Source: Rhizobium leguminosarum (GTDB lineage: Bacteria > Pseudomonadota > Alphaproteobacteria > Rhizobiales > Rhizobiaceae). Taken from it: a stretch of 64,000 nt of DNA. A program made the position numbers and the translations under genes. How positions within the stretch are numbered: the stretch's first letter is position 1; every line of letters begins with the position of its first letter. Under the pieces are notes generated by a model. That model saw only the letters and a program-made list of their open reading frames with translations. It searched no databases and had not been told where the DNA came from. Below, one piece after another: positions 15,232-47,465 of this stretch. The DNA is taken from NCBI RefSeq assembly GCF_001679785.1, contig NZ_CP016293.1, forward strand, positions 62,001-126,000. Reading direction: 5' to 3'.

Positions 15232-15232
15232 A

Positions 15233-18961: not shown

Positions 18962-20791
18962 ATGTATCGCAACGCTCGCCGGTGGACATCACGCTCACTC
19001 CTGCTGGATTCGTTGGTTCCCCGATGGTTGACCGTCGGCGGAAAGGGAAGGCCTCGCAAGCCTGCCGATAAGCGCGAGGATAGTGCTCAACTTGCGACAT
19101 CCGTGCAAACGGCGGATGGAAACAAGCATGATGGTACGCTTGTCGACAATCCCTACAACAACGCGGCGATCAATGAGCATGATGTTGGACAGAGAGCGGG
19201 CGTGATCGGCGACGCAGATGGTCGGGCCGATAGCAACCACCCAGCGCCGCCCTTGCCCGCCCTGCCTAACGCTTTCGCAGCAAATCGCCAGACAGGGGTT
19301 CGAAACGGGGACACTGCCGCGTCTCGGTTGTTCGCCCACACGCCTGGTTTTGCAGGTTTCGAGCGGGACGCGCACGGAGTCGCATTCGGGGCTCGATCGT
19401 CCCTCTATCGCAGCTACGCTGGAATGAGCCTCATAGGCGACGATCCTTTGGCTCCGTATTTGCCGCAAAGCCCTGCACCGAGAGTTTCGGGAGAAGGTTC
19501 TGCCGCGGTGACGGGCGAGCGTGCTCACTCGGGCAACGTCGTCATCCTCGAATCGAGCCCGTCAGCGCAGGCGACTGCGCATCAGACTGGCGCGGATTCA
19601 CTGGCGTTTGGCATGCCCTTTGGTGTGTGCGGATGCGGCTACTTTACCTCCCCCACGCGGATTCTCGATTGGGCCCATGGCGGCGCCATGCTTCAACAGG
19701 ACGGCCAATTGCCGGGCACCAGGCTGACCGAGGGGCCGGACTTTGTATCGACGATCAAGCGGGCCATCAGCGCCTCGGCCAGCGACCCGCTTCTCGATCG
19801 TAATCTGTCCCCTCTCTCGGGCTGGCGCGGAACCGCAACGTGGACGGATTCGACGATCTTGAACGGATCGTTGCCAGGCGGCGGAGAGACCGGAACGGGC
19901 ACCGCCACATCCAAGGGCATCGGCATCCTTTCCGGCTCGGTGACGACGCCACCTTCTACGCAGCGGTCGTTGACGACGCAAAATCTGGCGGCCGCGGCTG
20001 CGGCCAGCAACCTGATCGTGCTGGAAAACCAGAAGCAGGGTAACCCGGAGAGCGAGTGGGGCATCGACGGTGCCGGTAGCTCCAACATCGAGGGATTTGC
20101 GACCGACATCAGCGTCGACAACGGCAAGACGATCAGCTTCAAGATCAATACCAATTCCACCAATTATCGGATCGACATATACCGGCTCGGCTATTATGGC
20201 GGCATGGGCGCCCGCAAGGTCGACACCATTCAGCATACCGGATTGCAGACTCAGCCAAATCCGTTGCGCAACGCCTCGACCGGCACGGTGGATGCCGGCA
20301 ACTGGGCCGTGTCGGCCTCGTGGACTGTACCGGAGGACTCCGTCTCGGGCGTCTATATCGCCAAGCTCGTGCGTCAGGATGGCACCTCCGGCCAAAATCA
20401 TATCCCGTTCATCGTGCGCGACGACGACAGCCGCAGCGACATCGTCTTCCAGACGGCAGACCAGACCTGGCAAGCTTACAACGGTTGGGGTGGGGCAAAC
20501 TTCTATGGCGGCAACGGTCCGGCGACGGGGCAGGGTGCTGGTCGCGCCTATGCGGTCAGCTATAACCGGCCGATTGCGACCCGCGGGGCGTGGGAACCGT
20601 TGCCGGCCCGCAGGATTATCTGTTCGGCGCCGAATATGCGGGCATCTACTGGCTGGAACAGAACGGCTATGACGTCTCCTACCTGTCGGGTGTCGACGCC
20701 GACCGCTATGGCAGCCTGTTGCTCAATCACAAGACCTATGTTGATGCCGGGCATGACGAATACTGGTCTGGACAGCAGCGGACCAATGTAG
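18962..20791 (+). CDS. Giant secreted protein 1, N-terminal part (frame lost near 20586)
   Basis: From ATG 18962 the frame gives about 350 residues of low-complexity, probably disordered sequence without a signal peptide. It then enters an N,N-dimethylformamidase-like domain (LENQKQGNPESEWGIDGAGS, then YRIDIYRLGYYGGMGARKVD, then FQTADQTWQAYNGWGGANFY) that matches giant protein 2 (36782-42121) closely. After YNRPIATRG, near 20586, the frame no longer follows the homologue; the domain continues in the next frame. The last 68 residues (to 20791) are a wrong-frame tail. One additional G in the 20585-20588 run would join both parts into a protein of about 2,350 residues. A sequencing error or a real inactivation are both possible. 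Confidence 0.75.
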   Translation: MYRNARRWTSRSLLLDSLVPRWLTVGGKGRPRKPADKREDSAQLATSVQTADGNKHDGTLVDNPYNNAAINEHDVGQRAGVIGDADGRADSNHPAPPLPALPNAFAANRQTGVRNGDTAASRLFAHTPGFAGFERDAHGVAFGARSSLYRSYAGMSLIGDDPLAPYLPQSPAPRVSGEGSAAVTGERAHSGNVVILESSPSAQATAHQTGADSLAFGMPFGVCGCGYFTSPTRILDWAHGGAMLQQDGQLPGTRLTEGPDFVSTIKRAISASASDPLLDRNLSPLSGWRGTATWTDSTILNGSLPGGGETGTGTATSKGIGILSGSVTTPPSTQRSLTTQNLAAAAAASNLIVLENQKQGNPESEWGIDGAGSSNIEGFATDISVDNGKTISFKINTNSTNYRIDIYRLGYYGGMGARKVDTIQHTGLQTQPNPLRNASTGTVDAGNWAVSASWTVPEDSVSGVYIAKLVRQDGTSGQNHIPFIVRDDDSRSDIVFQTADQTWQAYNGWGGANFYGGNGPATGQGAGRAYAVSYNRPIATRGAWEPLPARRIICSAPNMRASTGWNRTAMTSPTCRVSTPTAMAACCSITRPMLMPGMTNTGLDSSGPM

Positions 20792-23700
20792 AAGCAGCGC
20801 GCGATGCGGGCGTCAACCTGATGTTCTGGAGCGGTAACGAGGTCTATTGGCGCACCCGTTGGGGCAATGCCTATAGCGCCGACGGCACGCCCTATCGCAC
20901 TCTGATCTCCTATAAGGAGACCTGGTCGCCGAGCGCCAGCATCGACCCTTCCAACGAATGGACAGGCACATTCCGTGATCCGCGCCTCAGCCCACCCGCC
21001 ATCGGCGGCGGCAATCCGGAAAACTCGCTGACCGGGCAGCTGTTCCAGGTCGATGATGTCGGCAGCAATCTCCAGGCGATCACTATTCCTTATGACGACG
21101 CCAATCTGCGTTTCTGGCGCAATACGAACGTTGCCAATCTACAGCCTGGCCAGACGGCAACGCTTACCAAGAACTATCTTGGTTACGAATGGGACGAAGC
21201 GGTCGATAACGGCTTCGACCCGGCCGGCCTCGTCAAGCTGTCGTCGACGACGGTTCCGGTCAGCACCTATTTGCTCGACTACGGAAACACGACCGGCAAT
21301 GGGACCTCGACCCACAATCTGACGCTCTATCGTGCGCCCAGCGGTGCATTGGTGTTCGGCGCCGGTACCGTCTACTGGACATGGGGCCTGAGCGACAATC
21401 ACGACCTCACGGCGACTCCGACGGACCCGCGCGTGCAGCAGGCGATGGTCAATCTGCTTGCCGATATGGGCATTCAGCCCGGGACGCTGCAATCCGGGCT
21501 GATCGCCGCGACCGGCTCTACGGACCAGGTTGCTCCGACCTCCGTCATCACCGTACCCGCGACGGCGGCCGTTGGATCCACCGTTACAATTACAGGTACC
21601 GCTGCCGACACGGGCGGCGGGGTCGTCGCCGGTGTCGAAGTTTCCACCGACAACGGGGCGAGCTGGCATCCGGCGACAGGCGATGAGAACTGGACCTATA
21701 GCTGGTCGCCGCAGGTCGCCGGTAGCTACACCATCCGCTCCCGCGCCGTTGACGACAATATCAACCTCGAAACGCCCTCGTCCGGACGTACGGTCACCGT
21801 CAGTGGGCCGAGCTACACGTCTCTCTTCGGTTCGGCGACGCCAGCGGTCGTCAATACAAACGATTCGTCAGCCGTCGAACTCGGGGTCCGCTTCCAAACC
21901 TCTGTGGCAGGGACTGTCAGCGGTGTTCGTTTCTACAAGGGCAGCCAGGATACGGGCACGCACACCGGTTCACTCTGGTCGAGCACCGGCACGCGGCTTG
22001 CGACCCTCACCTTCACCAACGAGACCGCAAGCGGCTGGCAGGCCGCATATTTTTCCAGTCCAGTGGCGTTGACGCCCGGACAGACCTACACGGCGTCGTA
22101 CCACACGAATGCCGGTCGTTACTCGACAACCACCAACTATTTCGTCTCGAACGTAACCAGCGGGCCGCTGACGGCGCCGGCGAGTGGTAATGGCGTGTAC
22201 AGATACGGCAGCACCAGCCTGTACCCTACTGCCAGCTTCAGCTCGACGAATTATTGGGTCGATGTGATGTTCAATCCGTCGGCCTCCAACACGACGCCGA
22301 CGGCAGTTGCCGATGCGGGGGATGCGACTGAGAAGGGTGGCGTGGCCAACGGTTCGGGCGGCGTGGTTGCCAGCGGCAACGTGCTGACCAACGACACCGA
22401 TGCGGATGCCGGTGACACCAAGGCGGTCACGGCGATCCGCTTCGGCGCTACATCAGGTACGCTCGGCACGGCGCTGAATGGCACCTATGGCAGTCTCGTG
22501 CTCAGCGCATCGGGCGTCTATAGCTATGCCGTCAACGAGGCCAATGCTGCCGTGCAGGCGCTGCGGCAGTCGACCAACACGCTGAGCGATGTCTTCAGCT
22601 ATACGATGCGGGATACCGCCGGCGCCACCGCCACGGCAAACCTGACCGTCACCATCCATGGCGCCAACGATGCGCCGGTGCTGGCTGTCCAGACGGCTAG
22701 CCAGAACGCCACCGTCGGCTCTGCCTTCTCGTTCACGCTGCCGACGACGACCTTCACCGATGTCGACAGCGGCGAGACGCTGGCCTATGCGGCAACGTCT
22801 GCCGACGGCACGGCGCTGCCTGCCTGGTTGAGCTTCAATGCCTCGACGAGGACCTTCTCCGGAACGGCGACGACATCAGGTACCTATGGCGTCAGGGTGA
22901 CGGCAACCGACCTTGGCGGCCTCAGCGCCAACGAAACCTTCAACATCGCCGTGTCGACAACACCGAACACGACGCCGACGGCGGTTGCCGATGCGGGGGA
23001 TGCGACCGAGAAGGGTGGCGTGGCCAATGGCTCGGGCGGCGTGGTTGCCAGCGGCAATGTGCTGACCAACGACACCGATGCGGATGCCGGTGACACCAAG
23101 GCGGTCACGGCGATCCGCTTCGGCACCACAACCGGTACGCTCGGCACGGCACTGAACGGCACCTATGGCAGTCTCGTGCTCAGCGCATCGGGCGTCTATA
23201 GCTATGCCGTCAACGAGAGCAATGCTGCCGTGCAGGCGCTGCGGCAGTCGACCAACACGCTGAGCGATGTCTTCAGCTATACGATGCGGGATACCGCCGG
23301 CGCCACCGCCACGGCAAACCTGACCGTCACCATCCATGGCGCCAACGATGCGCCGGTGCTGGCTGTCCAGACGGCCGCCCAGAACGCTACCGTCGGCTCT
23401 GCCTTCTCGTTCACGCTGCCGACGACGACCTTCACCGATGTCGACAGCGGCGAGACGCTGGCCTATGCGGCAACGTCTGCCGACGGCACGGCGCTGCCTG
23501 CCTGGCTCGCCTTCAACGCCACGACGCGGACGTTCAGCGGCACGCCGACGACATCAGGCACCTACGGCGTCAGGGTGACGGCAACCGATCTTGGCGGCCT
23601 TGCCGCCAACGAGACCTTCAATATCACTGCGACAGTGGCGCCTGCGACCTACAGCCTGTTTAACGCCTCCAGCACACCGGCCCAGACGAACCTCAACGAC

Positions 23701-26007
23701 GGTCAGCAGCTCGAGGTCGGCGTCAAGTTCCAGTCGAACGTTATCGGTGATATTACCGCCATCAAGTTCTACCGCAGCGCCAACGACAACGGACAGAACG
23801 TCGTCGATCTGTGGACCACGACAGGCACCAAGCTTGCCACCGCCACCTTCTCCAACACCACGGCAAGCGGCTGGCAGACGGTGAACTTTACAACGCCTGT
23901 CACCATCGCCGCCAACACCACCTATATCGCGTCCTACCACACCACCGGCGCTTACGTGGCAACTAACAATTTCTATACGACCGCCGTCACCAGTGGTCCG
24001 CTGACGGCCCAGTCGAGCGCTGTCGCCGGCGGCAACGGCGTCTATGCCTACGGCGGATCTGCCACCGTAGGCATTTTCCCGAATGCCACCTTCAACGCTG
24101 CCAATTATTGGGCCGATGTGGTCTTCCGTCCGGCATCGACAACACCGAACACGACGCCGACGGCGGTTGCCGATGCGGGGGATGCGACCGAGAAGGGTGG
24201 CGTGGCCAATGGCTCGGGCGGCGTGGTTGCCAGCGGCAATGTGCTGACCAACGACACCGATGCGGATGCCGGTGACACCAAGGCGGTCACGGCGATCCGC
24301 TTCGGCACCACAACCGGTACGCTCGGCACGGCACTGAACGGCACCTATGGCAGTCTCGTGCTCAGCGCATCGGGCGTCTATAGCTATGCCGTCAACGAGA
24401 GCAATGCTGCCGTGCAGGCGCTGCGGCAGTCGACCAACACGCTGAGCGATGTCTTCAGCTATACGATGCGGGATACCGCCGGCGCCACCGCCACGGCAAA
24501 CCTGACCGTCACCATCCATGGCGCCAACGATGCGCCGGTGCTGGCTGTCCAGACGGCTAGCCAGAACGCCACCGTCGGCTCTGCCTTCTCGTTCACGCTG
24601 CCGACGACGACCTTCACCGATGTCGACAGCGGCGAGACGCTGGCCTATGCGGCAACGTCTGCCGACGGCACGGCGCTGCCTGCCTGGTTGAGCTTCAATG
24701 CCTCGACGAGGACCTTCTCCGGAACGGCGACGACATCAGGTACCTATGGCGTCAGGGTGACGGCAACCGACCTTGGCGGCCTCAGCGCCAACGAAACCTT
24801 CAACATCGCCGTGTCGACAACACCGAACACGACGCCGACGGCGGTTGCCGATGCGGGGGATGCGACCGAGAAGGGTGGCGTGGCCAATGGCTCGGGCGGC
24901 GTGGTTGCCAGCGGCAATGTGCTGACCAACGACACCGATGCGGATGCCGGTGACACCAAGGCGGTCACGGCGATCCGCTTCGGCACCACAACCGGTACGC
25001 TCGGCACGGCACTGAACGGCACCTATGGCAGTCTCGTGCTCAGCGCATCGGGCGTCTATAGCTATGCCGTCAACGAGAGCAATGCTGCCGTGCAGGCGCT
25101 GCGGCAGTCGACCAACACGCTGAGCGATGTCTTCAGCTATACGATGCGGGATACCGCCGGCGCCACCGCCACGGCAAACCTGACCGTCACCATCCATGGC
25201 GCCAACGATGCGCCGGTGCTGGCTGTCCAGACGGCCGCCCAGAACGCTACCGTCGGCTCTGCCTTCTCGTTCACGCTGCCGACGACGACCTTCACCGATG
25301 TCGACAGCGGCGAGACGCTGGCCTATGCGGCAACGTCTGCCGACGGCACGGCGCTGCCTGCCTGGCTCGCCTTCAACGCCACGACGCGGACGTTCAGCGG
25401 CACGCCGACGACATCAGGCACCTACGGCGTCAGGGTGACGGCAACCGATCTTGGCGGCCTTGCCGCCAACGAGACCTTCAATATCACTGCGACAGTGGCG
25501 CCTGCGACCTACAGCCTGTTTAACGCCTCCAGCACACCGGCCCAGACGAACCTCAACGACGGTCAGCAGCTCGAGGTCGGCGTCAAGTTCCAGTCGAACG
25601 TTATCGGTGATATTACCGCCATCAAGTTCTACCGCAGCGCCAACGACAACGGACAGAACGTCGTCGATCTGTGGACCACGACAGGCACCAAGCTTGCCAC
25701 CGCCACCTTCTCCAACACCACGGCAAGCGGCTGGCAGACGGTGAACTTTACAACGCCTGTCACCATCGCCGCCAACACCACCTATATCGCGTCCTACCAC
25801 ACCACCGGCGCTTACGTGGCAACTAACGGCTTCTTCACCAACGGCGTCAGCAACGGTCCGCTGTCGGCGCTGTCCAGCGCTGCGGCTGGCGGCAACGGCG
25901 TCTATGCCTACGGCGGATCTGCCACCACAGGTCTCTTCCCGACCAGCACCTTTGACTCGGCAAACTATTATGCCGATGTGGTCTTCCGGCCGCAGCTCGC
26001 AGCTTGA
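20590..26007 (+). CDS. Giant secreted protein 1, main part: dimethylformamidase-like, Ig-like and DUF4082 repeats
   Basis: An 1805-residue frame continuing the protein begun at 18962; its GTG start is artificial. Residues about 1-310 finish the N,N-dimethylformamidase-like catalytic region, with [11 protein letters not shown] and [13 protein letters not shown] conserved in both paralogues (the founding enzyme has a Tyr/Glu-ligated iron). An Ig-like domain (about 317-405) and a first DUF4082 domain (about 407-562) follow. Then come two VCBS plus putative-Ig units, a second DUF4082, two more units and a third DUF4082, in two nearly identical 620-residue blocks. The C-terminus is VVFRPQLAA. No signal peptide is seen; a type I exporter lies at 43882-47465. 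By domain content it is a secreted metal-dependent amidase-like adhesin or matrix protein; the substrate is unknown. Confidence 0.82.
22288..26001 (+). repeat. 1,860-bp tandem duplication inside giant gene 1
   Basis: Bases 22288-24147 and 24148-26001 are near-identical direct repeats with a constant offset of 1,860 bases (for example matching sequence at 23644 and 25504). Each copy holds two related 678-base units plus one DUF4082 domain. Identity breaks down only after about 25828, in the last DUF4082 domain. Such arrays readily expand or contract by recombination, and they can be collapsed in an assembly. Confidence 0.9.
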
Positions 26008-27281: not shown

Positions 27282-27430
27282 CACGGGACGCGGGAGTACC
27301 GGTGCGTGTTTCACTAATTTCGGGACAGCGATTCCGCTAATTCCGGGACAGTCTCGGACGTGGATTTAAGGTCGATTTTCGCAAGCGCCGTTCTGGCAGA
27401 TTGCCTCCTCATCATCGGTTGAGAGGGGCC

Positions 27431-28984: not shown

Positions 28985-29000
28985 AGGAAAGGAAAGACCC

Positions 29001-29944: not shown

Positions 29945-31060
29945 TTATGACTCTTTGACGGGGTAAGCTTTACGGAGCTTTTTGCGGGCATTTTCGGTTG
30001 TGAACATCCATTGGATCTTTGCGCCGTGGGCGTTGCGTTGCTGCTCCCAGGCTGCGACTTCGGCGATTATGGTGTCTTTGTTGTCGATACGACGGTCGAG
30101 GCATTGGCTACGCAGGACACCGATCTCGATCTCGACCATGTTGAGCCAACTGGCGTGCTTGGGCGTGTGGTGGAACTCCAGTCGCTTCAGCACCCTTCGA
30201 GCTTGCGGGGCGGGAAATGCGTCGTAAAGCGCCCCGGCGGAATGAGTGGAGAGGTTGTCCATCACCACGCGGATGATCGGCGCGTCGGGATAATCGACGT
30301 CGACCAGTTCGCGCATGCACTCGGCGAAGTCTTGGTTGGTTCGCCGATCGGTGACCTTCACCCTGCGCCAGGGCCGGTGGGCGTCCATGAAGACAAACAG
30401 ATTGACCGTGCCGTTTCGGCGATACTCGCAATCGTAGCGTTCAAGCTGGCCAGGCTTGGCCGCAATGGGCTCGCGCACTTCGCCGATGAGTTGGGTCGGG
30501 CTCTCGTCGAAGCAGACCACGGGCCTTTGTGGATCAGGCGTTTCTGCGTAGAGGTCGAGAACATCCTCCATGCGCGCGACGTATTCCCCATCGATCTTTG
30601 GGATGCACCACATGTCTTTGCGCCAAGGCTTGAGATGGTTCTCAGCCAGCCGGCGACGCACGGTCTCCGAGGACAACTGGTCATGATCGGTGAGCCGGAC
30701 CATCTCATCTGCCAGAAGCTCCAGGGTCCAGCGGGCTCGCCCGGGCGGCGGCTTTGAGCAGGCGGTCGCTACCAACAGCGCCTCCTCCTTGCTCGATAGC
30801 TTGCGCTCAACACCCGGGCGCGGTTCTTCGCTGAGCGCCCCTTCCAGATTGGCTTCCACAAACCGGCGTTTGGTCCGGTAAATCGTCGATCCGCTGACGT
30901 TCAAGGTTGCCGCGATCACCTCGTCGCTGAAGCCTTCGTTCGCTGCGACCAGGATCTGGGCGCGCTTGATCTTGCGCGACCTGTGGCACCCCCCGCTCAA
31001 CAAAGCGGCCAGTTGGTCACGTTCCGATTGGCTAAGCTCTATGTGAAACTTTATATTCAT
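29945..31060 (-). CDS. IS630-family transposase
   Basis: A 371-residue DDE transposase. The N-terminal helix-turn-helix includes KRAQILVAANEGFSDEVIAA and SGSTIYRTKRRFVE; the catalytic core has CFDESPTQLIGE, IRVVMDNLSTHSAGAL and FHHTPKHASWLNMVEIEI, giving the D, D and E residues. ATG 31060 lies behind a perfect AGGAGG. A longer in-frame extension to 31180 overlaps the divergent passenger gene and is not supported. Confidence 0.93.
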   Translation of the reverse strand: MNIKFHIELSQSERDQLAALLSGGCHRSRKIKRAQILVAANEGFSDEVIAATLNVSGSTIYRTKRRFVEANLEGALSEEPRPGVERKLSSKEEALLVATACSKPPPGRARWTLELLADEMVRLTDHDQLSSETVRRRLAENHLKPWRKDMWCIPKIDGEYVARMEDVLDLYAETPDPQRPVVCFDESPTQLIGEVREPIAAKPGQLERYDCEYRRNGTVNLFVFMDAHRPWRRVKVTDRRTNQDFAECMRELVDVDYPDAPIIRVVMDNLSTHSAGALYDAFPAPQARRVLKRLEFHHTPKHASWLNMVEIEIGVLRSQCLDRRIDNKDTIIAEVAAWEQQRNAHGAKIQWMFTTENARKKLRKAYPVKES

Positions 31061-31088
31061 CGACACCTCCTTCAGCGTGGAGACGCAG

Positions 31089-31373
31089 ATGAATCCCAAA
31101 ATGAGTCCCTCACTTGACCCGCAAGCCGCAACGGCAAGACGGGGCCTTACGCAGATCCAAGGCCAGTACCTGGCCTTCATCTACGCCTACAGCCGCATCT
31201 TCAAACAGCCTCCGGCCGAAGCCGACATGCGTCGCCACTTCGGCGTTACGGCTCCGTCTGTTCACCAGATGGTGCTGACCCTCGAGAAGGCGGGTTTTAT
31301 ATCTCGCGTGCCAGGCGCCGCACGCAGCATCCAACTTCTCATCCCACCAGAAGCCCTGCCAATTCTACGATAA
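31089..31373 (+). CDS. LexA-type winged-helix passenger protein of the IS630 element
   Basis: A 94-residue protein whose core (LTQIQGQYLAFIYAYSRIFK, then MRRHFGVTAPSVHQMVLTLE, then KAGFISRVPGAARSIQLLIP) matches the LexA DNA-binding domain. The C-terminal autoprotease domain of true LexA is missing, so it cannot be an SOS repressor of the ordinary type. It lies inside the IS630 terminal repeats, divergent from the transposase with a 28-base gap, so it probably regulates transposase expression. GTG 31077 is an alternative start. Confidence 0.75.
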   Translation: MNPKMSPSLDPQAATARRGLTQIQGQYLAFIYAYSRIFKQPPAEADMRRHFGVTAPSVHQMVLTLEKAGFISRVPGAARSIQLLIPPEALPILR

Positions 31374-31421
31374 GACAAACCGTCATAATCTCTGTGGCGT
31401 GGTACTAGCCCGCATCTCTCA

Positions 31422-34973: not shown

Positions 34974-34991
34974 CGCCCGCTTTTCTCACCG

Positions 34992-36619
34992 CCTGGCAGT
35001 TTTGGCTCTATAGTTGAAGCTAGTCGGCTGCGGTTTTAGGGCGTGGCATTGAAGGCGAGCGCAGGGGCGCCGCGGCGTGCGGCGATTGGAGTTTGTGCGA
35101 TGTATCCTGTGTTGTTGGCGGTCGGGGTTTCGATCCTGCGGCATCATCGGGCCGCGGCGCATATTCGGGCGTGTGCCCGGATGAATTCGTCGGCATAGGG
35201 GCAAGCCGACGTCATCGCCACTTTGATGCGGCGCACCGAGACGCGAACCTGCGCGCCGATTTTCAAAAGCTTCAGCCTGATGGTGCCGCAGGTGGCCTCG
35301 GCGAGCCGGGTATGGACAAGGCCGAGGCGGCGCAGGGCGCAGATCAGGACATAGGCAAACGAGGCGAACCAGAGCCGCAGTTGATTGGCGCGCATGGTAT
35401 GGGCACTGGTGCGGTCGGCGTAGAGGTCGAGCTGGCATTCCTTAATCCGGTTTTCCATATCGCCGCGAGCGCAGTAGAGATCCTCGTAAAGCGCCTGTGG
35501 CGCCCAGCACGCCGGTTTGAGGGAGGTCACGATGAAGCGCGGATTGGCGCCCAGCAGGGTCCATTCGGCCTTTCCGACGACCCGCCTGCGGCGTGTCCAA
35601 CTGTCTTTCGTCGACCACATGAAGTCGACAAAGACGCGGGCTGCCAGGCCGCTTGCCTTGGATGACAGGCGCGCTTCCTCCAAGGCCGAGGCGATCTGCC
35701 CTTCCAGCCGCGAGTTGCGCGCCAGGCCAAAGACATAATCGATCTGATTGCTCTCGCACCAGTCCATCAGTTCGTCGCGAGCAAAGCCGGAATCGGCACG
35801 CAGGACGATGCGCACGTTCGGCCAGCTTTGGCGGATCTGCCCGATGATGCGATCGAGTTCGGCTACCGATCCTGCGCTGGCGTCAATGTTCGAACGCCGC
35901 AGCTTGGCCGAAAGCAGGTGGCGGCCACAGAAGATGTAGAGTGGCAAATAGCAATGGCAGCCATAATAGCCATGGAAGAATGTCCCCTCCTGGTGGCCGT
36001 GCAGCGGATCGTCGGTGGCATCGAGATCGAGCACGATTTCCTCAGGCGGCCTGTCGTGGGCCTCCAGGAACAGGTCGACAAACAGGGCTTCCAGCGCTTG
36101 CCTGTCGTAACCGATCTTGTGATAGCGCGTCGGCGCCCCGAGGCGCCCATGCTCCAGTCGGTTCAGCGTCGACTTGCCGGCAAGGACCGCACAGTCTTGC
36201 CGCTTCGGCGTCAGGCTCTGCGACAAAAGCCCAAGAACGGGATCGTGGCGCAGCGTGTCATGGTCATCGACGTCCTCGTATCCCAAGGCGATCGCGGCGA
36301 TGCGCTGGCCAACCAGCGTGCGCACGCTGTGGACCGTGCAAGCCGGATCGCGACCATCGACAAAGCACGCCGCCACCCGGTCGAACAGGCCGATGGCTCT
36401 GTCGACATGGCGAAGGAGCAAGGCGCCGGCATCTGAGGTGATCGCTCCGCCGTCGAAATCTGCCACAACTTTGTGGCCGTCGAAGCCTTCAAATTCAAGC
36501 TGCGCGCGGATACACTGTGTCTGCATCGGACCCCGTCTTTCAATCTGATAACTCTTTGTTGCAAAAGCAGTTTCTCAGATTCTTGGGGCCGATGCACCCC
36601 TTACTTTGAGATATTCAGG
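34992..36619 (-). mobile_element. IS1380-family element, copy 2 (intact)
   Basis: Bounded by CCTG...CAGG-type ends near 34992 and 36619 and carrying an intact transposase. Right-end sequence GATGCACCCCTTACTTTGAG is shared with copy 1. The element ends just where the region upstream of giant gene 2 begins, so it may have removed or replaced that gene's original promoter or 5' end. Boundaries are approximate. Confidence 0.72.
35144..36526 (-). CDS. IS1380-family transposase
   Basis: A 460-residue DDE transposase. FDGGAITSDAGALLLRHVDR, PPEEIVLDLDATDDPLHGHQ, RIVLRADSGFARDELMDWCE and LYCARGDMENRIKECQLDLY carry the conserved residues of the IS1380 group, including catalytic Asp residues and the Glu in MENRIKE. 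Full family length and uninterrupted, so probably functional. Confidence 0.93.
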   Translation of the reverse strand: MQTQCIRAQLEFEGFDGHKVVADFDGGAITSDAGALLLRHVDRAIGLFDRVAACFVDGRDPACTVHSVRTLVGQRIAAIALGYEDVDDHDTLRHDPVLGLLSQSLTPKRQDCAVLAGKSTLNRLEHGRLGAPTRYHKIGYDRQALEALFVDLFLEAHDRPPEEIVLDLDATDDPLHGHQEGTFFHGYYGCHCYLPLYIFCGRHLLSAKLRRSNIDASAGSVAELDRIIGQIRQSWPNVRIVLRADSGFARDELMDWCESNQIDYVFGLARNSRLEGQIASALEEARLSSKASGLAARVFVDFMWSTKDSWTRRRRVVGKAEWTLLGANPRFIVTSLKPACWAPQALYEDLYCARGDMENRIKECQLDLYADRTSAHTMRANQLRLWFASFAYVLICALRRLGLVHTRLAEATCGTIRLKLLKIGAQVRVSVRRIKVAMTSACPYADEFIRAHARICAAAR

Positions 36620-36841
36620 CTAGAATTCCTCTTCACCCAGAGTCGGCCGCTGAGCAGTAGCCGGAGGCAGCTTTGCGGCCTTGTCGGTCGGGTATGCGGT
36701 GAGGGTCATCATATCGGAGTACGGAGTATCACCCACATACCCCAGATTGCTGTCGTACATTCCCATACGAAAGCTGGCAGGATGAAGCCTTCCAATGTCG
36801 GTCGACGGGAAACGGGGACGCCACTCTTGCTCAGATTTCAT
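36620..36841 (-). CDS. Small protein or gene fragment of unknown function
   Basis: A 73-residue frame (MKSEQEWRPRFPSTDIGRLH, with GYVGDTPYSDMMTLTAYPTD and ending GEEEF) whose composition looks protein-like rather than random. I do not recognise it. Its stop codon lies at the IS1380 border, so it may be the remnant of a longer gene truncated by that insertion. It overlaps the uncertain 5' end of giant gene 2 on the other strand, so both cannot be right in full. No good ribosome-binding site is seen. Confidence 0.3.
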   Translation of the reverse strand: MKSEQEWRPRFPSTDIGRLHPASFRMGMYDSNLGYVGDTPYSDMMTLTAYPTDKAAKLPPATAQRPTLGEEEF

Positions 36842-39800
36842 GTGAGGAATCGCGAATATCTAAGTACTGCCGGCGGCACGCCGAGCGTCTGTCACCCACC
36901 CTCCGTCTGGACCGCACTGCTTGGAACTGCGACCGTGGTGTCTTCAAGCACTCAGGGTCCCTACGGTTTTGCCAATCAGGGCAGCGCAACCGTCCAATCC
37001 TCCTTCTCCGGCACGGTCACATCTTCCCTGATATCATCAGGCGACATGCAATCCCCCGCATCGTCAACGGCGATGCCGGCGCGTGCGAGAGATAGCGGCG
37101 CGCAAGACGGTTTTACCAAGACGGCGTCGGCTGCGACGGTGTTCCAGACGCCTTCCTCGACATCGCAACGCACCGTCCTTGCCCCGGATCCGTCCGAGGA
37201 GGCTGCGACACTGCCTGCCGCTCCCGCGCTTACCGGTGTTACCACCGATGCCGACACTGGAAGCACCAAGACGGCGCCGCCGGTCAGCTCTTCCAGCAGT
37301 CTCGGCACGACTTCGTTGCGCCTTCAGGCCTCGATAGCATCTATCTCTCTGGAGCCGAGCCAGGACGTTTCTGCTGAGACGACCGCGGCCCCGACGGCAC
37401 TGGGGGCACTGGCGGCACCGGTGGCGCCGATGGCGGCGGTTTCGGCTGCGGCGACACCCAACAAGATCGCGCTCGAAAACCTGAAGCAGGGCAACCCGAT
37501 CAGCGAGTGGGGTCTGGAGGGCGATGGCGGCGGCACCATCCAGGGCTTCGCCACCGAAATCAGCACGAATATTGGCCAGACGGTCGATTTCAAGATCGCC
37601 ACCGATTCAACCCACTACCGCATCGATATTTACCGCATTGGCTATTACGGCGGGGCCGGCGCGCGCAAGGTCGACTCGATCGAGCAATCGCTGACATCGG
37701 CGCAGATCCAGCCGCACCCGATCGTCGACATGTCGCTCGGCCTCATCGATTGCGGCAACTGGTCGGTATCGGCGAGCTGGCAGATTCCCGACGATGCCGT
37801 CTCGGGCGTCTATTTCGCCAAGCTGGTGCGCGAGGATGGCACCGAGGATGCAAGCATCATCCCCTTCGTCGTGCGCGACGACGCCTCCACCAGCGATATC
37901 GTCTTCCAGACATCCGATACCACCTGGCAGGCCTATAATGCCTGGGGCGGCGCCAGCCTCTATTATGGCGAAGTCCCGGTCGATCCGGCCGACATGATCG
38001 GCTACCTGCCGCCGAACTGCAGCTGCGGGCTGACCGCGATCGGCCGTGCCTCGGCCGTCAGCTACAACCGCCCGATCATCACCAATACCAGCCCGATCGG
38101 CGGCCCGCATGATTTCGTCTTCGGCGTCGAGTCTTCGGCGATCCAGTGGCTGGAGCAGAACGGCTACGATGTTTCCTATATCTCCGGCGTCGATGCGACG
38201 CGTAGCGGCAGCCTGCTGCTGAACCATGATGCCTATCTCTCTGTCGGTCATGACGAATACTGGTCGGCCGAGCAGCGCGCCAATGTCGAGGCGGCCCGCG
38301 ATGCGGGTGTGAACCTCGCCTTCTGGAGCGGCAACGAGTGCTACTGGAAGGTGCGCTGGGAAAGCAGCATCGACGGCAGCGGCCAGGCCTATCGCACCAT
38401 GGTCTGTTACAAGGAGACCTGGGGCACGAGCACTGATCCGAGCGCTACCGGCACCGGCACCTGGCGCGATCCGCGCTATGCCGATCCGGGACAGGAGCCG
38501 GAGAATTCGCTAACCGGCACGATGTTCCAGGTGGACAGCTACCGTTCCGATACGATCACCATCCCCTACGACTATTCGAACCTGCGCTTCTGGCGCAACA
38601 CCGATGTCGCCGAGCTTGAGGAGGGCGAGACCTATAATCTGGTGCAGAACCTGCTCGGTTACGAGTGGGATTCCGACGTCGAAAACGGCTTCCGGCCGGA
38701 TGGCCTCATCAACCTGTCGCTCTCCTCGATCGCGGTCAGCACCTATCTGCGCGACTACGGCACGACGGTCGGCGATGCGGTGGCGACCCACAGCCTCACC
38801 ATGTACCGGGCCGAAAGCGGCGCGCTCGTCTTCGGTGCCGGCACCGTCTTCTGGTCCTGGGGCCTGAATGCCAACCACCAGGGAGCGCAGACGCCGACCG
38901 ATCCCAACGTGCAGCAGGCGATGGTCAACATGTTCGCGGACATGGGCATCCAGCCGACCACGCTCGATGCGAGCCTGATCCTCGCGACCCAATCGACCGA
39001 CGCGTTGAAGCCGACCTCGTCGATCTCGTCGCCGATCATTGGCGCCAGCTTCGTTGAGGGGCAGCGCGTCACCATCACCGGCACGGCGCAGGATTTCGGC
39101 GGCGGCATCATTGCCGGTGTGGAGGTTTCCACCGACGGTGGCCAGCACTGGTTCAAGGCCACCGGCCGCGAAAGCTGGAGCTATAACTGGGTCGTCCAGG
39201 CAAGCGGCACCTATACGATCCTGTCGCGCGCCGTCGACGACAGCGTCAATCTGGAGGCACCATCGGCCGGCAAACAGGTCACTGTTACCCTGCCGGGCAC
39301 ACAGGGCCTGTGGACGCTGGCGGAAAAGCCCGCGGTCGAAACGGCGATCGATCGCGATCCGGTCGAGCTCGGCCTGCGCTTCCAGGCGACGACGGCAGGC
39401 TCCGTGCAGGGCATCCGCTTCTACAAGGGCTTCTACAATACCGGCGACCACGTCGTCAGCCTCTGGTCCGGCAACGGAACCCTGCTTGCAACCGGCGTGT
39501 CGGTGGGTGAATCGCTCTCCGGCTGGCAGACGGTGATGTTCTCCTCGCCGATCCAGATCGCCGCCGGTACGACCTATGTGGCCTCCTATCACAGCAATGG
39601 ATTCTTCTCCGTCACCGAGAACTATTTCAGCGAGCCCTATGCCAGCGGCGCGCTGAAGGCCGTCGATGGCGGCGGCGTCTTTGCCTATAGCGGCACCAGC
39701 ACGTTCCCCGGTCAGAGCCCCGGCGGCTCGAACTATTGGGTGGATGTGGTCTTCGACGCCGGCCCGAACAGCCAGCCGGTCGCCACCGACGACAGCGGGC

Positions 39801-42121: not shown

Positions 42122-42169
42122 AGCCCGCGAGCATGTAAGGCCAAGCATCTGTAAAGGGTAATGAGATCG

Positions 42170-43402
42170 ATGATGGGTGCAGACAACAGATTGCCGGTAA
42201 CGGTTCTCGCCGGGTTTCTCGGCGCCGGCAAGACGACTGTCCTCAATCATGTCCTGAGCAATCGTGAGGGTCGCCGGGTTGCTGTCATCGTCAACGATAT
42301 GAGCGAGGTCAACATCGATGCGGATCTCGTGCGCGAGGGGGGTGCAGACCTCTTGCGCACGGACGAGACGCTGGTAGAGCTCACCAATGGATGCATCTGT
42401 TGCACTCTGCGCGACGATCTCCTGAGCGAGGTCCGCCGGCTCGCTAGCGCCGGCCGCTTCGACTATCTGCTGATCGAGGGCACCGGCATTGCCGAGCCGC
42501 TGCCGGTCGCAGCCACCTTCTCCTTCCGCGACGAGAGCGGGGCAGCACTCTGCGATGTCGCGCGGCTCGACACCATGGTTTCCGTCGTCGATGCGGTCAA
42601 TCTTCTCGCCGATTACCAGAGTGCCGAGTTCCTTGCCGATCGCGGCGAAAGGCGTGACGGGGACGATGAGCGCAAGCTCGTCGAACTCCTCGTCGAGCAG
42701 ATCGAATTTTCCGACGTCGTCATCATCAATAAGGCAGGCGATGTGCCGCCCGCAATGCTGTCGGAGGTTCGCCGGGTCGTCGCGGCGCTCAATCCGGATG
42801 CCCGCATCATCGAGGCGGCCTTCGGTCAGGTGCCGCTTGGCGCGATCATGGATACCGGGCTCTTCAGCGAGGCGAAGGCCGCCCGCCATCCGTTCTGGCA
42901 CAAGGAGCTTTACGGCTGGGGCGACCACGTGCCGGAGACCGAGGAATACGGCATTGCGAGCTTCGTCTATCGCAGCCGCCGGCCTTTCGATCCCGCACGG
43001 CTGAGCCGCGTGATCGAGCAGCCATTACCCGGCATCATCAGGGCGAAAGGGCATTTCTGGCTGGCGACCCGGCCGGACGAGATCGGCCTGTTGTCGATTG
43101 CCGGCACGCAATGCCGCATCGAGAACAGGGGGTTCTGGTGGGCCTCGGTGCCGCGGGCGCACTGGCCGCGCCATCCGCAATTCCGCCAGTTGCTTGACCG
43201 GCATTGGGATGACGTCTGGGGCGACCGTCGTCAGGAGCTGGTCTTCATCGGCTCCGGCTTCGACGAGGCGGCGATCCGTGCTGCGCTCGACGATTGCCTG
43301 GCCGGGGAGGAGACGGGTTTCGATCCGCAGACCGCCATCGGCCTTCGCGATCCGTTTCCGGCATGGCGGCACGATACTCACGCATCGGACCGAAAAGTGT
43401 GA
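42170..43402 (+). CDS. CobW/COG0523 G3E-family GTPase, copy 2
   Basis: A 410-residue paralogue of the GTPase at 26058, again directly behind a giant DUF4082 protein. Walker A ([16 protein letters not shown]), CxCC ([14 protein letters not shown]), EGTGIAEP and VIINKAGD are all present, as is the C-terminal [20 protein letters not shown] segment. The last residues after FPAW ([11 protein letters not shown]) are encoded by a palindromic repeat at 43383-43425 that has replaced the original stop; copy 1 stops right after FPAW. Starts at 42161, 42170 and 42173 are in frame; 42170 has AAGGG at 11 bases. Likely role as for copy 1: supplying metal to a secreted client. Confidence 0.88.
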
Positions 43403-43425: not shown

Positions 43426-43475
43426 TGTCGACTCAAAGGTGAACAGGTTTTGATTATCAACCAGAGGAGAGAACA

Positions 43476-43784
43476 ATGAGCAACGAACTTTATGCAGATG
43501 GCATCGGCGAGATCACAATCACGGGAACGATCGTGCGCATCGACCTGATGTCGCTCTCGGCCACCGATCGTGACGCCAACAACAATCCGAAGCCGGTCTT
43601 CCGCCAGCGCATCATCATGCCGATCGATGCCTTCGCCAATGCGGTCGATCTCATGCAGAAGGCGCTTGGCGGGTTGGTCGAGGCGGGTGCGGTCCGTCGC
43701 ATCGGCGATATGCCAGCTGCGGCGGCTGCCGATATCCAGACGGTGCAGGCCGGCGCTTCGAACGCCTCGCCGAACTTCAACTGA
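43476..43784 (+). CDS. Small protein of unknown function between CobW and the type I exporter
   Basis: A 102-residue soluble protein (MSNELYADGIGEITITGTIV, then PVFRQRIIMPIDAFANAVDL, then a Ala-rich tail). A strong AGAGGAGAG precedes ATG 43476. The pattern of beta strands, an 'RIIMPIDAF' strand-turn and a helix loosely resembles DUF3467-type small proteins, but I do not recognise it with confidence. Its position between the GTPase and the secretion transporter suggests a role in the same process, for example as an export or assembly factor; that is inference. Confidence 0.7.
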   Translation: MSNELYADGIGEITITGTIVRIDLMSLSATDRDANNNPKPVFRQRIIMPIDAFANAVDLMQKALGGLVEAGAVRRIGDMPAAAAADIQTVQAGASNASPNFN

Positions 43785-43795
43785 TAAAACAGGTC

Positions 43796-43836
43796 TAGAG
43801 CGCCGTGCGTCCATTCGGACGCACAAAGACGCTCTA
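43796..43836. repeat. Palindromic repeat
   Basis: TAGAGCG pairs with CGCTCTA and the inner TGCGTCC with GGACGCA around an ATTC loop. It lies between the small gene and the ABC transporter gene and has the form of the short palindromic repeats dispersed in Rhizobium genomes. It could also act as a transcript attenuator or stabiliser. Confidence 0.8.
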
Positions 43837-43881
43837 ACTTTTCAAATCGAAGCCTCGGTCTCGTATTGTTTCGGGTGGGCC

Positions 43882-46026
43882 ATGAGTGGTTTTCTGCATA
43901 CCAACCTGCACTGTCTTGCGCTCGTCGCGCGTCATCACGGCGTCGATCTTGCTCCTGAACGACTGCAGCACGATTATGCCGTCGGCAACGATCCCGTTGC
44001 CATGCGGCAGCTGCTGCGTATGGCCAAGGATGCCGGCCTCAGGGCAAGGCATCTGACGCTCGACTGGCGATCCCTGTTCCAACTCGGCGAGGCCTTCCCG
44101 GTGCTCGCCGAGCTGACGAACGGCAACTGGGTGGTCATCGCCGGCGCTGTCGGGAGCGGGGAGGATGAGAGAATCCGCGTTCTCGACCCGCTGGCATCAC
44201 GCGCCGAGGTGATGATGCTCAGCGAAGAGCAGTTCGCAAAGGCCTGGCTCGGATCGGTGATCCTGCTGAAGCGCAACTATCGCATGTCCGATGAGGACCG
44301 GCCCTTCGGCTTCCGCTGGTTTGTCCCCGAGATCATCAAGCAGCGCAGCTTCTTCCGCGACGTCGCGCTCGCCGCCTTCGTGCTCTACGGGCTGGGCCTG
44401 ACGACGCCGATCTTCTTTCAGCTCGTCATCGACAAGGTGCTGGTGCATCAGAGCTATGCGACGCTGACGGTTTTGACGGCGGGCATTGCGATCGCGCTCG
44501 TCTTCGACGCGACGTTCACCTTCCTGCGCCGCTATCTGCTGCTTTATGCGACAAACAGGATCGATATTCGCGTCGCGACTCGCACCTTCGGCCATCTGCT
44601 CAACCTGCCGATCGCGCTCTTCGAACAGGCCTCGGCCGGCGTTCTCGTCAAGCACATGCAGCAGACCGGGCGCATCCGCGAATTCCTGACCGGCCGGCTG
44701 TTTCTCACGCTCTTAGACGGCGTTTCGCTGCTGGTCTTCGTGCCGATCCTGCTTCTCTACAGCGTCAAACTGACGCTTGTCGTGCTCGGTTTCGCCGCCC
44801 TTGTCGGGCTCGTGGTGATGATGCTCGTCGGGCCGTTCCAGCGCCGGTTGCAGGCGCTCTACCAAGCCGAAGGCGACCGGCAGGCATTGCTGGTGGAAAC
44901 CGTGCACGGCATGCGCACCGTCAAATCGCTGGCGTTGGAGCCGCGCCAGCGCAAGGTGTGGGACGATTATTCGGCGCAGGCGATCTCCGTGCGTTTCCGC
45001 GTCGACAAGATCTCGACCATCGCCCAGGCGATGACCGGACTGCTGGAGAAGCTGATGAGCGTCGCGATCATCGGCCTCGGCGCGCTCGATGTCTTCAGCG
45101 GCGCGATGACGATCGGCGCGCTGGTCGCCTTCAACATGCTCGCCGGCCGGGTCTCGGGACCACTGGTGCAGATCGTCACCATGGTGCACGAATATCAGGA
45201 AGTCGCGCTCTCCGTGCGCATGCTCGGCGAGATCATGAACCAGCGGCCGGAGCAGGCGGGCCGCGGGCGAGGTGTTCGGCCGCATCTGCAGGGCCGCATC
45301 GAATTCGACAGGGTCAGCTTCCGTTACGGCCCGGATAGCGCGCCGGCGCTCGACAATGTCTCCTTCGCCATTCCGGCGGGCTGCCTCTTCGGCGTGGTCG
45401 GTAAGAGTGGCTCGGGCAAGACGACGATCACAAGGCTCATCCAGGGACTCTATCAGAGCCAGGAAGGCCTCGTGCGCATGGATGGCTATGACAGCCGCGA
45501 GATCGACCTCGTGCATCTGAGAACGAGCATCGGCGTCGTGCTGCAGGACAGTTTCCTGTTTCGCGGCTCGGTGCGCGAGAATATTGCCGCCGCCAAGCCC
45601 GATGCCAGCATCGAGGAAATCATGGAAGTCGCCCGCATTGCCGGCGCCGAGGAGTTCATCGAGCGCCTGCCGCGCGGCTTTGACACGATGCTGGAGGAAA
45701 ACGCCTCCAACCTGTCAGGCGGCCAGAGGCAGCGGCTTGCCATTGCCCGCGCGCTGATCACCGATCCGAAGCTGTTGATCTTCGACGAGGCGACGAGTGC
45801 GCTCGACCCTGACAGCGAGGCGATCATCCGCGAGAATCTGAGCCGCATCGCTGCCGGCCGCACCGTCATCATCGTCTCGCACCGACTTTCGACGCTCGTC
45901 GATGCCGATGCCATTCTCGTCATCGAGCGTGGCAAGGTCGCCGATATCGGCCGGCACGATCAGCTTGTATCGCGCTGCATGACCTATCGTCACCTGTGGT
46001 CCCAGCAGATGAGGCAGGTCGCATGA
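43882..46026 (+). CDS. Type I secretion ABC transporter (HlyB/PrtD-like with inactive C39-like domain)
   Basis: A 714-residue inner-membrane exporter. Residues 1-130 form a C39-peptidase-like domain (MSGFLHTNLHCLALVARHHG) in which Thr replaces the catalytic Cys, as in HlyB, where the domain holds unfolded substrate instead of cutting it. Six membrane segments occupy about 155-420 (PIFFQLVIDKVLVHQSYATL). The ATPase domain has VGKSGSGKTTITRLIQG, the LSGGQRQRLAIARAL signature, LLIFDEATSALD and the H-loop SHRLSTL. With the HlyD-like protein it should export unfolded proteins lacking signal peptides; the giant proteins upstream are obvious candidates. A TolC partner is not in view. Confidence 0.92.
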   Translation: MSGFLHTNLHCLALVARHHGVDLAPERLQHDYAVGNDPVAMRQLLRMAKDAGLRARHLTLDWRSLFQLGEAFPVLAELTNGNWVVIAGAVGSGEDERIRVLDPLASRAEVMMLSEEQFAKAWLGSVILLKRNYRMSDEDRPFGFRWFVPEIIKQRSFFRDVALAAFVLYGLGLTTPIFFQLVIDKVLVHQSYATLTVLTAGIAIALVFDATFTFLRRYLLLYATNRIDIRVATRTFGHLLNLPIALFEQASAGVLVKHMQQTGRIREFLTGRLFLTLLDGVSLLVFVPILLLYSVKLTLVVLGFAALVGLVVMMLVGPFQRRLQALYQAEGDRQALLVETVHGMRTVKSLALEPRQRKVWDDYSAQAISVRFRVDKISTIAQAMTGLLEKLMSVAIIGLGALDVFSGAMTIGALVAFNMLAGRVSGPLVQIVTMVHEYQEVALSVRMLGEIMNQRPEQAGRGRGVRPHLQGRIEFDRVSFRYGPDSAPALDNVSFAIPAGCLFGVVGKSGSGKTTITRLIQGLYQSQEGLVRMDGYDSREIDLVHLRTSIGVVLQDSFLFRGSVRENIAAAKPDASIEEIMEVARIAGAEEFIERLPRGFDTMLEENASNLSGGQRQRLAIARALITDPKLLIFDEATSALDPDSEAIIRENLSRIAAGRTVIIVSHRLSTLVDADAILVIERGKVADIGRHDQLVSRCMTYRHLWSQQMRQVA

Positions 46027-47465
46027 ACCCGCATACCAGAAAACCCAGCGAAAACCTGCCTGTTCCGTCAGGCAAAGGCCCTTCAGACAAGGGGCCCTCG
46101 GGGAAGGGCAGGGAGCTTGTCGCCCGCCCGCCGTTGCCGCCGGCAATTGCCGAATTCCAGTCCGACGCCGTCGAGCTCGAGGAGCGCGCGCCGCCGCGCA
46201 TTGCACGGATGACGCTCTACTGCGTGACGGCGCTGATTGTTTCGGCGATCATCTGGGCCTCGGTCTCGTCGATCGATGAGGTGGTGATTGCGCCCGGCAA
46301 GCTCGTCACCACCCAACCGACCATCGTCGTCCAGCCGCTCGAAACCTCGATCATCCGCACGATCGAGGTGAAGGCCGGGGAAGTGGTGCATGCCGGGCAG
46401 ACGCTCGCGACCCTCGACGCCACGTTCAGCCAGGCCGATGTCGACCAGCAGCAGGCGAAGTTCTCCGCCCTCGACGCCCAGGTGAGGCGCATCGAGGCCG
46501 AGCTTGCCGGCGACGACTACACGAAGATGGCGGGAGATACGCCCGACCAGGTGCTGCAGGCGCAGCTCTTCGGCCAGCGACAGGCCTTCTACATGGCGCA
46601 GCTGCAGAATTTCGAGCAGCAGATCGCCGGCCAGTCGGCCGCTCTTGCGGCAAGCAGGAACCAGGAGGCCGTGCTCAACGACAGGCGCGATGGGCTCTCG
46701 CAGATCGAGGCAGCGCGGGAGCGGCTCTATGACAAGCAGAGCGGCTCGCTGATCACGCTGCTGGGCTCGCGTGACGCCCGCCTCGACGTCGAGTCCGACC
46801 TGACCGCTGTCCGCGGGCGGGCCGACGAGGCCGCCCACGCCTATGCCAAGCTCCGAGCCGACCGCCAGGCCTTCATCGAGGATTTCCGCCGCGCCGCAAT
46901 GGAGCAGCTGGTGGAATTGCGCGGCCAGCGCGACATGGCTGACGAGGAGCTGAAAAAGATGGAACTGCGCCGCAACATGGTGGCGCTGACCGCACCCGCC
47001 GATGCCGTCGTCCTCGATCTCGCCCAGCGCTCGGTCGGTTCAGTGGTGCGCGAGGCGGAACCGGTCGTGACGCTGGTGCCGATCAACGTGCCGCTCGAAG
47101 CCGAAGTCTCGATCAACACCCGCGACATCGGCCGCGTGGCCGTCGGCAAGGAAGCCCGCATCAAGCTCGACGCCTATCCCTTCCAGAAATACGGCACCGC
47201 CTCGGGCGAGGTGAGAACCATCAGCCAGGACACCTTCCTCACCGGCCAACAGGAGCAGACAGAGACCCCGAGCCAGCCGGCCGCCCCCTTCTTCAAGGCG
47301 CGGATCCTGCTTGCCGATACCCGGCTGAATGCCGCAGGTATGCCGGTGCGGCTGCTTCCCGGCATGACCGTGTCCACGGAAATCAAGGTCGGCAAACGTA
47401 CGGTGATCTCCTATTTCCTGTATCCGCTGCTGCGTGGCCTCGATAACGCAATACGCGAACCGTAA
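46023..47465 (+). CDS. HlyD-family membrane fusion protein of the type I exporter
   Basis: A 480-residue periplasmic adaptor: a cytoplasmic tail, one membrane segment (YCVTALIVSAIIWASVSSID, about residues 68-87), a lipoyl-like half (PGKLVTTQPTIVVQPLETSI), a long coiled coil (about 140-330, e.g. QLQNFEQQIAGQSAALAASR), the second lipoyl half (PADAVVLDLAQRSVGSVVRE) and a beta-barrel domain to GMTVSTEIKVGKRTVISYFL. The last motif is the HlyD family signature. It overlaps the transporter gene by four bases, so both subunits are translationally coupled. Confidence 0.92.
   Translation: MNPHTRKPSENLPVPSGKGPSDKGPSGKGRELVARPPLPPAIAEFQSDAVELEERAPPRIARMTLYCVTALIVSAIIWASVSSIDEVVIAPGKLVTTQPTIVVQPLETSIIRTIEVKAGEVVHAGQTLATLDATFSQADVDQQQAKFSALDAQVRRIEAELAGDDYTKMAGDTPDQVLQAQLFGQRQAFYMAQLQNFEQQIAGQSAALAASRNQEAVLNDRRDGLSQIEAARERLYDKQSGSLITLLGSRDARLDVESDLTAVRGRADEAAHAYAKLRADRQAFIEDFRRAAMEQLVELRGQRDMADEELKKMELRRNMVALTAPADAVVLDLAQRSVGSVVREAEPVVTLVPINVPLEAEVSINTRDIGRVAVGKEARIKLDAYPFQKYGTASGEVRTISQDTFLTGQQEQTETPSQPAAPFFKARILLADTRLNAAGMPVRLLPGMTVSTEIKVGKRTVISYFLYPLLRGLDNAIREP

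What the first reader, a model, noticed from the sequence alone, without database searches (positions are those of the whole stretch)
18962..47465. Duplicated module: giant DMFase-like/DUF4082 protein + CobW GTPase, linked to a type I exporter
Seen: two paralogous giant proteins share a dimethylformamidase-like region with conserved GHDEYWS and FWSGNE motifs, DUF4082 domains and Ig-like domains. Each is followed directly by its own COG0523 GTPase, and the second pair continues into a small protein and an HlyB/HlyD pair. Known: N,N-dimethylformamidase is an iron enzyme, COG0523 GTPases deliver metals, and HlyB/HlyD pairs export proteins without signal peptides. Inference: a secreted metalloenzyme-adhesin system in which the GTPase loads metal, or protects the metal pool, before export. 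I know of no description of such a system.
Basis: partly seen in the sequence, partly recalled or inferred. Interest (0 to 1): 0.88.

Follow-up and report, generated by a model that had tools for sequence, protein, structure and literature searches.

The report
Type I-secreted metalloamidase-like protein with paired GTPase
In rhizobia and their kin, a giant, probably secreted protein that keeps the iron-binding residues of dimethylformamidase is mostly encoded beside its own metal-handling GTPase, a small conserved protein and an exporter, so what that GTPase does can now be tested in a well-studied strain.

Summary
The window is Rhizobium. In strain 3841 the exporter was named BltDE in 2008 and both giants were already predicted substrates (PMC2275737), so that link is not new. 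The paired GTPases, the dimethylformamidase-type site and the small protein are in none of the passages I read.

New here: (1) 73 of 80 named loci carry giant, GTPase, small protein, HlyB and HlyD; 4 are cut short, 3 differ. (3) The dimethylformamidase ligands (two Tyr, Glu) and catalytic His are invariant in 35 of 35 relatives. (4) Most giants end in a (R/K)PQLAA-type tail.

Against metal loading by the GTPase before export: 47 short relatives have no listed GTPase within 79 kb, three genomes have a giant without any full-length ZigA-type GTPase, and type I substrates cross unfolded (recalled). Verdict: a real conserved secretion module and a COG0523 association I found in no paper searched; the GTPase's client is unknown.

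The parts
18962..20587 (+). Giant A, first part: N-terminus and first part of the DMFase-like domain, with the two Tyr ligand equivalents
   Evidence: WQAYNGWGGANFY; tblastn of 3841 giant A residues 1-542; DMFA2_C profile 1-139
20587..26007 (+). Giant A, second part, in another frame: HDEYWS, rest of the DMFase-like domain, Big_7 (just below cut-off), 3 DUF4082, VCBS/He_PIG repeats, C-terminal tail RPQLAA
26097..27281 (+). GTPase A, COG0523, ZigA-like (NF038288 568.5 bits, cut-off 600), CxCC present
36706..36781 (+). Conserved non-coding element directly before the giant B start; core GATTGCTGTCGT; GTA-type half-sites in inverted order by eye
   Evidence: (47 sequences); one exact match in own genome
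36782..42121 (+). Giant B (1779 aa): DMFA2_C, Big_7, 4 DUF4082 alternating with cadherin/Big_9-type domains, C-terminal tail RPQLAA
37934..37936 (+). Codon of Tyr385 of giant B, equivalent of DMFase iron ligand Y399
   Evidence: Y399 counted by hand in the alignment
37961..37963 (+). Codon of Tyr394, equivalent of DMFase iron ligand Y440
   Evidence: the 6LVD chain, Y440A, shows the position
38249..38257 (+). Codons of His490, Asp491, Glu492: equivalents of DMFase catalytic H519 and iron ligand E521
   Evidence: the 6LVE chain, E521A, shows the position
42170..43402 (+). GTPase B, COG0523, ZigA-like (563.6 bits, cut-off 600), CxCC present
43476..43784 (+). Small protein (102 aa), no Pfam, NCBIfam or PHROGs match; conserved before HlyB
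43882..46026 (+). HlyB-type ABC exporter (BltD, pRL90164 in 3841) with a C39-like domain
46023..47465 (+). HlyD-type adaptor (BltE, pRL90165 in 3841)
   Evidence: (TIGR01843 319.4 bits, cut-off 208.65)
29945..36526 (.). Transposase genes (29945-31180 -, 33660-34880 -, 35144-36526 -) and a group II intron-type RT gene (31908-33236 +) between the two modules; not there in 3841

Best explanation
The locus is a conserved type I secretion module of the Hyphomicrobiales; in many Rhizobium loci giant and GTPase are present twice, the exporter once. SHOWN by sequence: a giant protein with a dimethylformamidase-type domain whose ligands (two Tyr, Glu) and catalytic His are intact in giant B, and a C-terminal half of DUF4082 and cadherin-like repeats; beside it a ZigA-paralogous GTPase of its own clade, a 102-aa protein and an HlyB/HlyD pair. 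INFERRED: HlyB/HlyD (BltDE) exports the giant unfolded, using its conserved (R/K)PQLAA-type tail and probably helped by the small protein; the repeats fold outside and hold a metal-dependent amidohydrolase at the cell surface or in the polysaccharide matrix. The GTPase stays in the cytoplasm and handles metal for this pathway. I do not think it fills the site before export; more likely it keeps metal off the unexported protein or serves another step of the module.
Against: No secretion, metal or activity data for any member. Giants without an adjacent GTPase keep the ligands (L015, L022, L108, L109). Linked GTPases hardly differ from unlinked ones (2 diagnostic columns at 90/85% conservation), and in six genomes the linked type is the only full-length one listed, so it may be a general factor. 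The window giants have no RTX repeats. The part of the 3841 culture-supernatant table that I saw lists neither giant, and the mutants named there do not include bltD. The 80 loci are the best 80 of 240 and mostly Rhizobium.
Confidence: 0.55

Rival explanations
1. The linked GTPase is a general zinc-homeostasis ZigA that merely sits in this operon; the giant is not its client.
For: GTPase A is 67% identical to the own unlinked ZigA; CxCC and further Cys/His/Asp/Glu positions are shared; in G083, G104, G147, G051, G118 and G145 the listed matches over 500 bits are linked copies next to a giant, plus one at a contig edge in G145; giants in G088, G508 and G512 do without any.
Against: The linked copies form their own group; adjacency holds with the order permuted and in two paralogous modules; no Zur-like site near the giants, while the unlinked copy has one (2 mismatches) and the ZnuA gene beside it an exact one (consensus recalled).
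Confidence: 0.3
2. The GTPase metallates the dimethylformamidase-like site in the cytoplasm before export, like the Fe-type nitrile hydratase activator.
For: Complete ligand set; precedent of Nha3, a COG0523 protein required for an iron enzyme (PMC2770081, passages).
Against: 47 short DMFA2_C hits in 37 genomes have no listed COG0523 match nearer than 79 kb (capped list of 150 rows); ligand-intact giants exist without it; export of a folded metalloprotein by type I is not expected (recalled).
Confidence: 0.2
3. The giants are bacteriocin-like proteins, as suggested in 2008.
For: Proposed in PMC2275737 from the exporter's similarity to bacteriocin/lantibiotic exporters.
Against: The exporter matches HlyB better than bacteriocin transporters (E 9.3e-153 against 2.1e-92); the giants carry an enzyme fold and adhesin-type repeats.
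Confidence: 0.07
4. Giant and GTPase are together by shared descent alone, a frozen neighbourhood without functional link.
For: Most of the 80 named loci are Rhizobium and close kin.
Against: Order reversed in G185, G363, G346; dN/dS 0.02-0.12; only these genes recur among diverse neighbourhoods.
Confidence: 0.1

Closest known systems
BltDE and pRL90159/pRL90161 of Rhizobium leguminosarum bv. viciae 3841 (PMC2275737; passages and one section read)
   Same: Same locus in a close relative; exporter and both giants named, ~140-aa repeats noted (by length and number these should be DUF4082)
   Different: In what I read: no mention of the GTPases, the small protein, the dimethylformamidase-like domain or ligands; exporter called bacteriocin type, here closest to HlyB
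N,N-dimethylformamidase of Paracoccus (6LVB; PMC7686228, passages) and N-acetyl-(R)-beta-phenylalanine acylase (8HUY)
   Different: About 20% identity; here part of a giant with repeats and an exporter; DMFase has a small subunit, none recognised here
ZigA (NF038288) and other COG0523 metallochaperones
   Same: GTPase A 67% identical to the own unlinked ZigA, CxCC, full-length match
   Different: Below the ZigA cut-off (568.5 and 563.6 against 600 bits), own clade, no Zur-like box found
Nha3, activator of Fe-type nitrile hydratase (PMC2770081, passages)
   Same: COG0523 gene encoded beside a non-heme iron enzyme
   Different: There the client is nitrile hydratase (cytoplasmic, recalled); here the presumed client is exported
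BapA/Bap/LapF large adhesins (NF045619)
   Same: VCBS and cadherin-like repeats; giant A 143.5 bits
   Different: Below the cut-off of 180; carries an enzyme domain; RTX repeats only in some relatives

Membership tests
Dimethylformamidase superfamily (PF20254) | Pfam DMFA2_C over its cut-off | tested here: met
   344.6 bits for giant B; 135.1 and 187.6 for the two pieces of giant A; cut-off 27
Dimethylformamidase superfamily (PF20254) | 2-Tyr-1-Glu iron ligands and catalytic His | tested here: met
   Invariant in 35 of 35 rows of A1, mapped through 6LVB/6LVD/6LVE and PMC7686228; in the window's giant A the set is split by the frameshift
Dimethylformamidase superfamily (PF20254) | Fold | tested here: met
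Dimethylformamidase (the enzyme) | Small subunit gene | tested here: inconclusive
   The 102-aa protein has no family match and no clear fold match
Dimethylformamidase (the enzyme) | Amidohydrolase activity, bound iron | not testable with these tools
   needs protein
ZigA (NF038288) | Score over the curated cut-off | tested here: not met
   568.5 and 563.6 against 600 bits
ZigA (NF038288) | Zur box upstream | tested here: not met
   Recalled consensus, up to 2 mismatches: window matches only at 1592, 55776 and 59858, 3 against 2.09 expected; positive control L023
COG0523 | GTPase domain and CxCC motif | tested here: met
   PF02492 and PF07683 over cut-off; GCICC in 134 of 134 ZigA-type sequences
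HlyB-type exporter | Closest solved relative is HlyB | tested here: met
   7SGR best of 508, 9.3e-153
HlyB-type exporter | No peptidase cysteine in the C39-like domain | tested here: inconclusive
   Alignment begins at residue 8 against HlyB 10; one residue beyond it Thr7 would face HlyB residue 9; the role of that residue is recalled
HlyB-type exporter | TIGR01846 over cut-off | tested here: not met
   675.8 against 725.55 bits, best of 188 families
RTX protein | RTX repeats (PF00353) | tested here: not met
   None in either window giant; over cut-off in L079 and L089, listed for P0021, P0030, P0113
Type I secretion substrate | Loss from medium or surface in an exporter mutant | not testable with these tools
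   needs a bltD mutant

The most novel reading that the evidence does not exclude
A dedicated G3E GTPase and a small partner prepare a metalloenzyme for type I export: they keep its 2-Tyr-1-Glu site free of the wrong metal, or charge it, in the cytoplasm, so that an iron amidohydrolase is delivered to the cell surface by a route thought to need unfolded protein. This would be a COG0523 subfamily whose client is a secreted enzyme.
Probability: 0.25. Interest if true: 0.8.

Novelty: new variant of a known kind. Interest (0 to 1): 0.55.

Why it matters
The 2009 survey says that over half of COG0523 may serve unknown proteins (PMC2770081, passage). Here one clade is tied to one other protein family, in an operon that exists in a genetically tractable model strain, so client and metal can be tested directly. 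It also puts a dimethylformamidase-type metal site into a giant, probably exported protein found in many root-nodule bacteria, and adds an uncharacterised small protein that tracks the exporter.

Tried and rejected
Zur regulation of the module: not supported. Iron-box, RpoN and Fur/ICE patterns upstream (recalled): only TGA-N9-TCA matches in four relatives, none in the four window and 3841 regions. Rfam for the upstream element: one hit below the gathering score (18.5 against 40 bits), taken as chance. Regulon of the element: a first pattern had my own spacing error and found nothing; a second found the own site plus two sites with 2 mismatches. The element was found in 47 of the sequences scanned (153 loci and the window), mainly Rhizobium, and not in many more distant B loci. 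Small protein as a known family or as the DMFase small subunit: no support. PDB search with the whole giant hit only an RTX protein; the domain alone and the profile worked. Amide groups of the neighbouring polysaccharide as substrate: an idea only; polysaccharide genes did not recur beside the module in the 25 loci.

Literature: no held paper has both COG0523 and type I secretion; none of the 40 listed, which rank papers with more terms first, has both COG0523 and dimethylformamidase; DUF4082 is in one held paper (listing only); BltDE and its locus tags in two. A four-term search listed ten papers, none with dimethylformamidase. Supplementary files and most subscription papers were not seen, so absence from print is not shown. 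Two tree scripts failed on a pattern and were corrected.

Rows dropped: G029 left out of the giants (32% identical, short frame); five fragmented G089 hits not. The GTPase tree used 57 of 134 sequences; the unlinked ones were picked from the top-scoring full-length matches plus four lower ones.
Full report
IDENTITY. The window lies in a Rhizobium genome (G000:C8:62001-126000): the DMFase-like region of giant B is 98-100% identical to proteins named from R. leguminosarum and R. laguerreae. The matching locus in R. johnstonii 3841 is on pRL9: giant A, GTP-binding protein, giant B, GTP-binding protein, 102-aa hypothetical, ABC exporter, HlyD.

OBSERVATION. Pfam finds DMFA2_C, DUF4082 and Ig/cadherin-type domains in both giants, cobW plus CobW_C in both GTPases, and C39-like, ABC and HlyD domains in the exporter pair. 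tblastn with 3841 proteins corrects the gene starts and shows giant A split at about 20587 between two frames; one base is missing against 3841, and no other locus aligned across the point lacks it. Giant A is also fragmented in L026. A second frameshift, in a sugar aminotransferase at about 11744, makes assembly slips possible.

CONSERVED ADJACENCY. In the window's family sample, 49 of 151 genomes carry PF20254. The 15 B-type giant loci (14 fetched plus the window) all continue into GTPase, HlyB and HlyD on the same strand. Of the A-type giants there, those of the window and of G128 have their GTPase; those of G138, G064 and G088 do not; that of G145 ends near a contig edge, with an A-type GTPase at the edge of another contig. 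Of 80 named loci (the best 80 of 240, so close relatives), 73 have giant, GTPase, small protein, HlyB and HlyD; L035, L060, L063 and L101 are cut short; L100 has giant and GTPase only; L079 and L089 have giant and small protein only; 25 of the 80 also carry a GTPase upstream of giant B. G508 has giant, small protein, HlyB and HlyD without GTPase; G512 has a giant without full-length ZigA-type GTPase, small protein or close HlyB; G285 has a shorter PF20254 protein without any of them nearby. Among 25 diverse loci, proteins of 130 aa or more recurring in 20 or more are giant, GTPase, HlyB and HlyD; one more family recurs in 4.

GTPASES. Both score just below the ZigA cut-off. A tree of 57 sequences puts all 36 linked copies on one side of a branch (100/95) and all 21 unlinked ones, including the window strain's own third copy, on the other. 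A-type Rhizobium copies and those of G185, G363 and G346 group together (100/98), as do their giants (91/95). CxCC is present in 134 of 134 sequences. Only two alignment columns separate linked from unlinked copies, so no change of metal can be read from sequence. The unlinked copy has a Zur-like site before it (2 mismatches) and a ZnuA gene with an exact one beside it; no such site lies near the giants.

METAL SITE. A 35-row alignment of giants and short DMFA2_C proteins finds 6LVB with E 1.6e-109 and the acylase 8I5A with 7.9e-121. The mutant chains 6LVD and 6LVE mark Y440 and E521 in that alignment; Y399 was counted by hand. The three ligands named in PMC7686228 (passages) and its catalytic H519 are invariant in 35 of 35, including four giants without an adjacent GTPase (L015, L022, L108, L109). 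The predicted fold agrees.

SMALL PROTEIN AND TAIL. The 102-aa protein follows the giant in 75 of 80 named loci (L100 and the four cut-short loci lack it). Among 14 genomes searched it is in 7 of 8 with a giant and 0 of 6 without (giant status). Its model is three strands and a helix, pLDDT 76, without clear relatives. Of 106 distinct giant C-termini, 51 end RPQLAA, 29 KPQLAA, 8 RPQLVA, 8 RQQLAA and 10 otherwise; RPQL occurs nowhere inside these proteins. L100, which lacks the adjacent exporter, ends otherwise, but so does L022, which has one.

MECHANISM. Shown: conserved genes, ligands, fold, clade, purifying selection (dN/dS 0.02-0.12 between window and 3841 for giant B and five other genes). 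Two relatives carry RTX repeats over the Pfam cut-off (L079, L089), as type I substrates often do. Inferred: export of the giant by BltDE, folding and metal binding outside, amidohydrolase activity at the surface. Metal loading before export is weakened by the 47 short DMFA2_C hits without a listed COG0523 match nearer than 79 kb, by giants without GTPase, and by the unfolded state of type I substrates (recalled).

KNOWN WORK. PMC2275737 (passages and one section) named bltDE and predicted both giants as substrates, suggesting bacteriocin-like proteins; the review PMC10925705 repeats this (passages). The exporter is closer to HlyB than to bacteriocin transporters. PMC2770081 (passages and part of one section) describes fifteen COG0523 subgroups, including the nitrile hydratase activator; its neighbourhood figure and additional files were not seen, so one of its subgroups could include this clade.

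A recount confirmed 73 of 80 and 25 of 80, added the small protein to all 73, and replaced a by-eye distance check by a computed one; one search added the RTX and ZnuA matches.

Noticed in passing
window 36706-36781: Conserved ~75-base non-coding element before giant B, found in 47 of the sequences scanned and once exactly in the own genome; function unknown
   Followed up: partly
window 11166-12268: Sugar aminotransferase (DegT) gene split by a frameshift against 3841
   Followed up: partly
window 2824-18297: Polysaccharide cluster upstream: glycosyl and sugar transferases, aminotransferase and hexapeptide acyltransferase genes, translocase and Poly_export protein, response regulator; also upstream of the module in 3841
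   Followed up: partly
window 29945-36526: Transposase genes and a group II intron-type RT gene between modules A and B
   Followed up: no
window 27314-29002: Minus-strand ORF of 562 aa without Pfam or NCBIfam match, directly after GTPase A
   Followed up: no
L079 470-5596, L089 7907-14668: Giants with RTX repeats, in L089 also a DUF4347 N-terminus; both keep the small protein without GTPase or HlyB nearby
   Followed up: partly
L026 3257-7205: Giant A broken into several frames in another Rhizobium strain
   Followed up: no
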